Assembly: GCA_014874485.1 (NCBI GenBank)
Contig: JADBJK010000049.1
Location: forward strand, 1 to 50,378
Length of the DNA: 50,378 nt
Reading direction: 5' to 3'
From: Chloroflexota bacterium
Lineage (GTDB): Bacteria > Chloroflexota > Anaerolineae > DTLA01
Made by a program: the position numbers and the translations under genes. The notes under the pieces were generated by a model that had not been told where the DNA came from, made no database searches, and was given only the letters and a program-made list of their open reading frames with translations. Shown in pieces: positions 47,857 to 50,378 of this stretch. How positions within the stretch are numbered: the stretch's first letter is position 1; every line of letters starts with the position of its first letter.

Positions 47857-48077
47857 GCACACTTGCAGACGAGGGCAATCCGACGGTGGGGGTATTCCAA
47901 TCGCGATGCCGTGGTTGTCTCGTTTCCGGTTTCCGACAAACGTTCCTCGTACACCCCGCCTTGTGCACATGGGCGACACTTGGAAAGGAGGTGAAGACCA
48001 GAGAAGAGGTTTTTGCCGAAACGGCCGTGAGCACAGAAATCCCCAGGAAAAAGTCTTTACTTTAGGAGGAGAACGAC
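47857..48077 (+). promoter_or_regulatory. Long 5' leader of the lipoprotein gene
   Basis: About 220 untranslated bases separate the promoter from the ATG. It contains a second perfect ribosome binding site, AAAGGAGGTGA (47986-47996 region), well before the real one (AGGAGGAGAACGAC). A short frame from the GTG within it would run about 24 codons and stop at TAG just at the real ribosome binding site, which could be a leader peptide. No known riboswitch class is recognised. Confidence 0.45.
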
Positions 48078-50045
48078 ATGCGTAACCGTGCGTTTGCTGC
48101 ACTGAGCATCCTGCTCATCCTGTCCATGGTGCTGGTGGCGTGCGGCGCGAAGCCGACCCCCACCGCGCCCGCTCCGTATCAGGCGAAGCCGACCCCCACA
48201 CCGGAGCCGACGACTCCGCCCCCGCCGCCCGCCATCGGGACCGAGGCGCAGCCGCTGACGATGGTCTTCGTCCCGTCGGGCGACACGCAGCGGATTCTGG
48301 CCGGCGCCGAGAAACTGGACAAACTCATCAAGGACAAGACCGGCCTGGTTACCAAGTCCAGCGTGGCGACCTCGTATGCGGCGGTGATTGAGGGCATGGG
48401 CGCCGAGAAGATTGACATCGGCTGGCTGGCCCCGCTGTCCTACGTCCTGGCCAAGGACAAGTACGACGTGCAGTTGCTGCTCATCACCATGCGCTACGGC
48501 TCGGCCACCTACAAGGGCCAGATCAACGTCCGCGCCGATTCCGGCATCAAGACCCTGCAGGACCTGAAGGGCAAGAAGTTCGCCTTCACCGACCCGGTCT
48601 CCACGTCGGGCTACCTGTACCCGTATGCCCTGTTCAAGAAGAACGGCATTGACCCGACCAAGGACTTCGCCGAGACCGTCTTCACCGGTGGGCACACAGC
48701 GGCCGTGCTGGCCGTGTACAACGGGCAGGTGGATGCGTCCGCGTCCTATGACGATGCCCGCGGCACCCTGGCGAGCACCTATCCCGACATCAAGGACAAG
48801 GTAACGGTCCTGGCCTACACCGACGAAATCCCCAACGACACCGTGTCCGTGCGCAAGGGCCTGCCGGAGGATGTCGTCGCCAAGTTGAAGCAGGGCCTGC
48901 TGGACATCGCCCAGACCGACGAGGGCAAGGCCGTCCTGCAGGAAATCTACGAAATCGGCGGCCTGACCGAGGGGACCGATGCCATGTTTGACCCCATCCG
49001 CCAGACGGCGACGGCCCTGGGCATTGAACTGAAGAACTGGAAGGGCGTGTCGGTTCCGTACAAGGTGGGCCAGGTTACCGACACGGGCGGCATTGACGAC
49101 AAGTCCTTCAACGCCACGGCCTGGAAGGGCGTTGAGGACGCCATGAAGAAACTGTTCGTGGAAGGCAAGTACCTGGAATCCCAGCAGCAGTCGGACTATG
49201 CCAAGAACATCACCGAGTTCATCCAGCAGAAGTACGACCTGATCATCACGGTAGGCTTCTTGCTGGGCGTGGACACGGCGAAGTTCGCGAAGGAAAACCC
49301 GAACGTCAAGTTCGCCATCGTGGACTACGCGTATCCGGACTGCTGGCCGGGCGCGGTCGTGGGCAAGGACTGCGGCTCGGACACGCCGATTCCGAACGTG
49401 CGCGGCCTGACCTTCAAGACGGATGAGGCGGCGTTCCTGGCGGGCTACGTGGCGGCAGCCATGACCAAAACCGGCAAGGTGGGCACCTTCGGCGGCATGA
49501 AGATCCCGACCGTTACCATCTTCATGGATGGGTTTGAGTACGGCGTGAAGTACTACAACGAGAAGCACGGCACCAAGGTGCAGGTGCTCGGTTGGGACTC
49601 GGCCAAGCAGGAAGGCACGTTCACCAACGACTTCGTGGATATCCAGAAGGGTCGCCAGACCGCCGAGTCGCTGTTTGACGAGGGCTGCGACATCGTCATG
49701 CCGGTGGCCGGGCCTGTGGGCCTGGGCGCGGCGGCGGTGGCGAAGGAGCGCGGCCTGATGATCATCGGCGTGGACACCGACTGGTACATCAGCGCGCCCG
49801 AGTACAAGGAGACCTACCTGACCAGCGTGCTCAAGAACATGGACGTGGCGGTGTACGACACCATCAACTCCGTGGTCAAGGGCACGTTCAAGGGCGGCGA
49901 GAACTATGTCGGCACGCTCAAGAACAAGGGCGTGGGCATCGCTCCGTTCCACGACTACGAGAGCAAGATTCCGGCGGGTCTGACCGACGAACTGAAGCAG
50001 ATCACCGACGACATCATCGCCGGCAAGATCAAGACCAGCCCGTAA
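48078..50045 (+). CDS. Lipoprotein with fused PhnD-type and BMP/PnrA-type substrate-binding domains
   Basis: A 655-residue lipoprotein. The signal peptide ends at the lipobox LVAC with Cys22, followed by a Thr/Pro-rich tether to about residue 55. Residues about 58-325 are a PhnD-like (phosphonate/phosphite ABC transporter) binding domain: MVFVPSGDTQRILAGAEKL, IDIGWLAPLSYVLA, KKFAFTDPVSTSGYLYP. Residues about 335-650 are a BMP/PnrA-type domain: VGQVTDTGGIDDKSFNATAW, ITVGFLLGVDTAKFA, GLTFKTDEAAFLAGYVAA, VGTFGGMKIPTV and IIGVDTDWY. Either half is normally a full protein. No permease or ATPase gene follows before the window ends. The fusion is complete, without a frameshift. Ligands are unknown; nucleosides are typical of BMP proteins. 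Confidence 0.9.
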   Translation: MRNRAFAALSILLILSMVLVACGAKPTPTAPAPYQAKPTPTPEPTTPPPPPAIGTEAQPLTMVFVPSGDTQRILAGAEKLDKLIKDKTGLVTKSSVATSYAAVIEGMGAEKIDIGWLAPLSYVLAKDKYDVQLLLITMRYGSATYKGQINVRADSGIKTLQDLKGKKFAFTDPVSTSGYLYPYALFKKNGIDPTKDFAETVFTGGHTAAVLAVYNGQVDASASYDDARGTLASTYPDIKDKVTVLAYTDEIPNDTVSVRKGLPEDVVAKLKQGLLDIAQTDEGKAVLQEIYEIGGLTEGTDAMFDPIRQTATALGIELKNWKGVSVPYKVGQVTDTGGIDDKSFNATAWKGVEDAMKKLFVEGKYLESQQQSDYAKNITEFIQQKYDLIITVGFLLGVDTAKFAKENPNVKFAIVDYAYPDCWPGAVVGKDCGSDTPIPNVRGLTFKTDEAAFLAGYVAAAMTKTGKVGTFGGMKIPTVTIFMDGFEYGVKYYNEKHGTKVQVLGWDSAKQEGTFTNDFVDIQKGRQTAESLFDEGCDIVMPVAGPVGLGAAAVAKERGLMIIGVDTDWYISAPEYKETYLTSVLKNMDVAVYDTINSVVKGTFKGGENYVGTLKNKGVGIAPFHDYESKIPAGLTDELKQITDDIIAGKIKTSP

Positions 50046-50107: not shown

Positions 50108-50378
50108 TACTTGACCACAGCGAAGATTGTCCGTTGCCATTGCGAGCGGAGCATCTCGGTTGGCGAGATTCTTCGCGGCTTCGCCGCTCAGAATGACAGC
50201 ATTTGTCATGCTGAGCGAAGCGAAGCATCTCGGTTGGCGAGATTCTTCGCGGCTCCGCCGCTCAGAATGACAGCATTTGTCATGCTGAGCGAAGCGAAGC
50301 ACTCGGTTGGCGAGATTCTTCGCGGCTTCGCCGCTCAGAATGACAGCATTTGTCATGCTGAGCGAAGCGAAGCATCTC
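50108..50378. repeat. Tandem array of the dispersed repeat at the right contig end
   Basis: After an introduction shared with 29846-29862 (ACTTGACCACAGCGAA), a 74-bp unit starting GCATCTCGGTTGGCGAGATT repeats at 50151, 50225, 50299 and, cut off, 50372. The third copy lacks one base (GCACTCGG). Each unit has two hairpin modules with CTTCG/CGAAG arms. The array runs off the window. Reading frames through it are repeat artefacts. With the short gap after the lipoprotein gene this accounts for the whole right-hand stretch; no gene is seen. Confidence 0.88.

What the first reader, a model, noticed from the sequence alone, without database searches (positions are those of the whole stretch)
48078..50045. 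One lipoprotein combining PhnD-type and BMP/PnrA-type binding domains
The two domains belong to different substrate-binding protein clusters that usually serve different transporters. One polypeptide with both, on one lipid anchor, could feed two substrates to one permease or sense a paired signal. I know of no described example.
Basis: partly seen in the sequence, partly recalled or inferred. Interest (0 to 1): 0.66.

Follow-up and report, generated by a model that had tools for sequence, protein, structure and literature searches.

The report
Two-headed receptor for two importers
A bacterial surface lipoprotein joins two different nutrient-catching domains in one chain, and comparison of genomes suggests that it serves two separate membrane importers, one for nucleosides beside its gene and one for a phosphorus compound elsewhere in the genome.

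Summary
The 655-aa ORF at 48078-50045 has one lipobox, a Phosphonate-bd domain (PF12974, 8.6e-67) and a Bmp/PnrA domain (PF02608, 9.5e-63), with both ligand pockets intact. It is not an artefact: the same fusion (48-97% identity) occurs in 10 of 396 class genomes, in six families, with a conserved short junction; the Phn domains form one clade.

The contig continues past the window. The fusion is followed by an RbsA-like ATPase and two BPD_transp_2 permeases, a BMP-type importer, as in nine of ten genomes (the tenth is cut by a contig end). In all ten genomes a phnC-phnE pair sits at another locus without phnD, and the fusion carries the only Phn domain of that type. In 80 other class genomes 50 of 55 PhnE clusters have a PF12974 gene within 6 kb, and no genome has PhnE without PF12974. 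Two relatives encode a BMP-BMP-Phn lipoprotein followed by both importers.

Best explanation: phnD left phnDCE and fused to the nucleoside receptor, giving one lipoprotein that loads two ABC importers. Inferred, not shown biochemically. I found no published example.

The parts
48064..48069 (+). AGGAGG ribosome-binding site, 8 nt before the ATG
   Evidence: sequence
48078..50045 (+). gene for the two-headed lipoprotein (655 aa)
   Evidence: open frame and translation; the same gene in nine other genomes
48078..48143 (+). lipoprotein signal peptide, lipobox LVAC with Cys22
   Evidence: sequence; A21 and C22 invariant in the ten fusions
48144..48248 (+). Pro/Thr-rich tether, residues 23-57
   Evidence: sequence; variable in length in the alignment
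48264..48986 (+). Phosphonate-bd (PhnD/PtxB-type) head, residues 63-303; pocket residues S175 T176 S177, H206, Y100, Y122, acidic cap D226/D254
   Evidence: PF12974 8.6e-67; pocket residues shared with solo PhnD of phnDCE operons; residue roles from PMC5700983
49029..49058 (+). short junction, residues 318-327; N320 W321 K322 G323 invariant in fusions and absent from the solo Phn proteins compared
49068..50015 (+). Bmp/PnrA-type head, residues 331-646; F344, N345, F519, D566, K586 invariant
   Evidence: PF02608 9.5e-63; alignment to PnrA 2fqw and to Lbp 7x0r (Lbp reported with guanosine); invariance

Best explanation
The gene makes one lipid-anchored receptor with two heads, each serving a different ABC importer. 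The C-terminal Bmp head catches a nucleoside-like ligand and docks on the BMP-type importer encoded directly downstream (RbsA-like ATPase, two BPD_transp_2 permeases). The N-terminal Phn head catches a small phosphorus anion (phosphate, phosphite, a phosphonate or a phosphate ester) and docks on the PhnC-PhnE importer encoded at another locus, which has lost its own phnD. The fusion arose once, when phnD was joined to the nucleoside receptor gene. A plausible benefit is joint capture of both products of extracellular nucleotide breakdown, nucleoside and phosphate. Shown: fusion, conservation, intact pockets, adjacent importer, phnCE without phnD, absence of another Phn receptor of this type. 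Inferred: docking on PhnE, the ligands, the benefit.
For: Two intact domains behind one lipobox. Ten fusions in six families of the class, scoring at least 1006 bits against at most 529 for anything else; Phn domains one clade at 97/95; fusion-specific NWKG junction. BMP-type importer genes follow the fusion in nine of ten; the tenth is cut by a contig end. Each of the ten genomes has one PhnE, in a phnC-phnE pair with no PF12974 gene beside it. In seven of ten the fusion is the only PF12974 protein found in the genome; the extras in the other three are a distant lone type, 51-97 bits against 298-565 for the fused heads. Controls: 50 of 55 PhnE clusters in 80 other genomes have PF12974 within 6 kb; no genome has PhnE without PF12974. 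G081, G105 and G017 lack both. The fused Phn pocket matches solo PhnDs that sit in phnDCE operons. The unlinked PhnE of fusion genomes group together (76/53; seven of them 89/80) with inner branching like that of the Phn tree. G018 and G277: BMP-BMP-Phn, phnC, phnE, then BMP-type importer genes in one run, with a nucleoside hydrolase in G277. G144: Phn-Phn-SBP_bac_8 beside malFG-like permeases, with phnCE elsewhere, followed by a 5'-nucleotidase.
Against: No biochemistry. All ten are draft genomes (completeness 83-99%), so a missed phnD is possible in any one, though hardly in all ten; some phnCE contigs are short (L082, L084, L085). The fusion is one evolutionary event, so the ten genomes are not independent and the Fisher value of 1.7e-8 overstates the case. 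Matching trees may reflect shared descent rather than contact. AlphaFold did not model the Phn half, so no docking geometry is offered. The acidic cap (D226/D254) resembles that of E. coli PhnD, which binds 2-aminoethylphosphonate, so inorganic phosphate as the ligand is uncertain.
Confidence: 0.72

Rival explanations
1. GlnPQ-like: both heads deliver their ligands to the one adjacent BMP-type permease, which accepts both.
For: The fusion is followed directly by that importer; tandem SBDs with different specificity feeding one permease are known in GlnPQ (PMC8025302).
Against: Leaves ten PhnCE pairs without a receptor. GlnPQ's two domains belong to one sub-cluster (F-IV), whereas these are different families that normally pair with different permease families (BPD_transp_1 and BPD_transp_2). 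In G018 and G277 both importers follow the fused gene.
Confidence: 0.13
2. The Phn head is no longer a transport receptor. It acts as a sensor or an allosteric part that gates nucleoside uptake by phosphorus status.
For: Phn-family proteins also act as periplasmic sensors (ArrX and AioX are among the PDB matches; their sensor role from general knowledge); the short conserved junction could pass on conformational change.
Against: Pocket residues match those of transport PhnDs. The PhnCE pairs without phnD would remain unexplained.
Confidence: 0.08
3. The fusion is an assembly error, a frameshift, or a one-off gene fusion without function.
For: The genome is a draft of 122 contigs.
Against: Same gene structure in ten genomes of six families, down to 48% identity, with conserved junction and pockets.
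Confidence: 0.01

Closest known systems
PhnD/PtxB/HtxB family (PF12974, TIGR01098), receptors of PhnCE-type importers
   Same: First half: family by profile; pocket motif D-P-x-S-T-S-G, His, IPND
   Different: Fused to another receptor, and its gene is away from phnCE; below the TIGR03431 PhnD equivalog cut-off (180.7 against 261.1 bits)
PnrA/BMP nucleoside receptors with an RbsA-like ATPase and two BPD_transp_2 permeases
   Same: Second half and the downstream genes; nearest solved relative by sequence is Lbp 7x0r, reported with guanosine in its density (PMC9601137)
   Different: Carries a Phn head on its N-terminus; no member of this make-up found in the literature searched
GlnPQ tandem substrate-binding domains (Lactococcus)
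   Same: Two receptor domains joined by a short linker, with different ligands
   Different: GlnPQ domains are of one cluster, fused to their own permease, and serve that one permease
OpuA (two substrate-binding domains per transporter)
   Same: More than one receptor domain per importer
   Different: Same ligand, same importer

Membership tests
PF12974 / TIGR01098 phosphate-phosphite-phosphonate SBP family | score over the curated cut-off along the whole profile | tested here: met
   PF12974 225.5 bits against 27; TIGR01098 223.5 against 112
PF12974 / TIGR01098 phosphate-phosphite-phosphonate SBP family | residues that hold the ligand oxygens (Ser-Thr-Ser loop, His, Tyr) | tested here: met
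   S175 T176 S177, H206, Y122 invariant in the ten fusions
PhnD equivalog (TIGR03431) | score over the equivalog cut-off | tested here: not met
   180.7 against 261.1 bits
PtxB phosphite receptors | capping tyrosine (Y208 in Te_PtxB) | tested here: not met
   position holds D254, as D205 does in E. coli PhnD (alignment; residues from PMC5700983)
Phosphonate uptake for C-P lyase | phnJ in the genome | tested here: not met
   no PF06007 in 13 genomes; E. coli control positive
PnrA/BMP receptors (PF02608) | score over cut-off, and the stacking Phe, Asp and Lys positions | tested here: met
   212.4 bits against 24.1; F344, F519, D566, K586 invariant
NCBIfam putative B6 BMP transporter (NF047927-NF047930) | score over equivalog cut-offs | tested here: not met
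   43.6 against 400 bits for the receptor; ATPase and permeases also below cut-off
BMP-type ABC importer operon | receptor followed by RbsA-like double ATPase and two BPD_transp_2 permeases | tested here: met
GlnPQ-like tandem SBD importer | both domains serve one permease | tested here: inconclusive
   phnCE without phnD in 10 of 10 fusion genomes argues against it; transport not testable here
Receptor serving two importers | physical docking of each head on its own permease | not testable with these tools
   needs reconstitution or genetics

The most novel reading that the evidence does not exclude
In this class of bacteria receptors of unrelated ABC importers are repeatedly fused (Phn-Bmp, Bmp-Bmp-Phn, SBP_bac_8-Bmp, Phn-Phn-SBP_bac_8), so that one lipoprotein loads two importers and may hold them together at the membrane, coupling uptake of the two parts of a broken-down nucleotide.
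Probability: 0.3. Interest if true: 0.75.

Novelty: new variant of a known kind. Interest (0 to 1): 0.62.

Why it matters
ABC importers are usually described as one receptor, or several, per permease. A receptor that joins two unrelated binding domains and serves two unrelated permeases reverses that ratio, and makes a clean test of how receptors choose permeases and whether importers can be physically coupled. It would also explain the phnCE pairs without phnD in these genomes, and warns that annotation by operon would miss the receptor. If the ligands are nucleoside and phosphate, it would be a simple device for scavenging extracellular nucleotides or DNA.

Tried and rejected
A structure model: AlphaFold with 14 rows gave a confident Bmp half but left the Phn half unmodelled, because only four rows carried a Phn domain. 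An apparent X-Phn fusion (L076, 771-aa frame) was dropped: I judged its N-terminal 500 residues a non-coding open frame (no Pfam match; strongly hydrophilic), and that Phn gene sits in an ordinary phnDCE operon. The fusion was looked for outside the class and not found in a 400-genome sample of the phylum. The C-P lyase reading of the ligand was rejected for lack of phnJ. Promoter and terminator scans gave nothing above chance. Literature searches for this domain pair found only a general SBP survey.

Full report
What is there. The ORF at 48078-50045 on the + strand is a real gene: AGGAGG 8 nt before an ATG, 655 codons, a lipobox ending in Cys22, then a Pro/Thr-rich tether. Residues 63-303 match Phosphonate-bd (PF12974) over the whole profile and residues 331-646 match Bmp (PF02608) nearly whole. 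The nearest solved relatives by sequence are PtxB and E. coli PhnD for the first half and Lbp, BmpA and PnrA for the second. The heads are joined by about ten residues (NWKGVSVPYK) with no second signal sequence.

It is not an artefact. Among 396 genomes of the class, ten hold the full-length fusion (bit scores of 1006 or more; the next match scores 529 and is Bmp only), in six families (first seen). Identity to the window protein is 48-97%. The alignment keeps the lipobox Cys, the ligand residues of both heads and the junction NWKG, which the solo Phn proteins compared lack. The ten Phn domains form one clade (97/95), so one fusion event is enough. An eleventh probable case, G065, is cut by its contig end; its PhnE also lies on another contig. 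None was seen outside the class in a 400-genome sample of the phylum.

The neighbours. The window is only the first 50,378 bases of an 84,021-base contig. Just beyond the window lie an RbsA-like double ATPase and two BPD_transp_2 permeases, then a ubiE-type methyltransferase gene. The same three importer genes follow the fusion in nine of ten genomes; the tenth is cut by the contig end. So the Bmp head has its importer beside it. In G277 a related run of genes includes an inosine-uridine nucleoside hydrolase, and the nearest solved relative, Lbp, was reported with guanosine in its density (PMC9601137); a nucleoside is the likely ligand.

The missing receptor. The Phn head has no PhnC or PhnE beside it. 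Each of the ten fusion genomes has one PhnE, always in a phnC-phnE pair on another contig, with no PF12974 gene beside it. In seven of the ten the fusion is the only PF12974 protein found in the genome. The extra ones in the other three are a distant lone type, 51-97 bits to the query Phn domain against 298-565 for the fused heads. In 80 other well-covered genomes of the class, 50 of 55 PhnE clusters have a PF12974 gene within 6 kb, and no genome has PhnE without PF12974. G081, G105 and G017, in which no PF12974 protein was found, have no PhnE either. The simplest reading is that phnD left the phnDCE operon, became a head of the nucleoside receptor, and still loads PhnCE in trans.

Support from trees and other fusions. 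The unlinked PhnE proteins of the fusion genomes group together (76/53 for ten, 89/80 for seven) with inner branching like that of the fused Phn heads, while genomes of the same families with ordinary phnDCE (G050, G078 and G198 of f14; G016 of f16) branch elsewhere in both trees. Shared descent alone could give this, so it is supportive only. In G018 and G277 another layout, Bmp-Bmp-Phn, is followed in one run by phnC, phnE and BMP-type importer genes: one lipoprotein, two importers. G081 and G105 have SBP_bac_8-Bmp lying between two malFG-like permease genes and the BMP-type genes. G144 has Phn-Phn-SBP_bac_8 beside malFG-like permeases, with its phnCE elsewhere and followed by a 5'-nucleotidase. 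The own genome also has a triple-Bmp lipoprotein.

Ligand of the Phn head. The Ser-Thr-Ser loop, His206 and the tyrosines are as in the family; the cap is D254 with D226, the positions of D205 and E177 of E. coli PhnD, and not the phosphite-type tyrosine (roles from PMC5700983). No C-P lyase (phnJ) was found in 13 genomes tested. PhnD1 of picocyanobacteria is thought to be a phosphate receptor in strains that lack C-P lyase (PMC10284923), so phosphate or a small phosphate ester is possible; an amino-phosphonate cannot be excluded.

What is shown and what is inferred. Shown: the fusion, its conservation, the intact pockets, the adjacent importer, the phnCE pairs without phnD and the absence of another Phn receptor of that type. 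Inferred: that the Phn head docks on PhnE, the two ligands, and the benefit. The fusion is one event, so counts over ten genomes are not independent evidence, and all are draft assemblies. Literature searches found no description of this pair or of a receptor shared in this way; the library holds open-access papers only.

Noticed in passing
window 50145-50378, on into L057 2246-2730: A 74-bp tandem repeat of about three copies follows the fusion gene, with a second related array just beyond the window; it lies between the receptor gene and the ATPase gene in this genome.
   Followed up: partly
L073 9045-12263 (own genome, contig C68): A 1072-aa lipoprotein with three Bmp domains, followed by its own BMP-type ATPase and permeases.
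   Followed up: partly
L067 5679-14616 and L133 3542-12722: SBP_bac_8-Bmp lipoprotein lying between two malFG-like permease genes and a BMP-type importer: it looks as if the receptors of two neighbouring importers were fused.
   Followed up: partly
L069 8609-10915 (G017): SBP_bac_8-Bmp lipoprotein gene with no importer genes recognised in the surrounding 19 kb; both partner importers would be unlinked.
   Followed up: partly
L075 6692-9751 and L087 3699-9162 (G144): Phn-Phn-SBP_bac_8 lipoprotein beside malFG-like permeases; phnCE without phnD at another locus, followed by a 1029-aa 5'-nucleotidase.
   Followed up: partly
L090 4446-5495 (G149): A second Phn gene in tandem whose ligand motif is changed (SPA for STS, Asn for His), perhaps a dead or re-purposed copy.
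   Followed up: no
L077 2952-4679 (own genome, contig C88): The PhnE of this genome carries an N-terminal RDD-family domain (575 aa in all; PF06271 8e-9).
   Followed up: no
window 49338-49373 (residues 421-432 of the protein): The Bmp head of this genus has an insertion with two cysteines (DCWPGAVVGKDC) not seen in the other seven fusions, possibly a disulphide loop.
   Followed up: no
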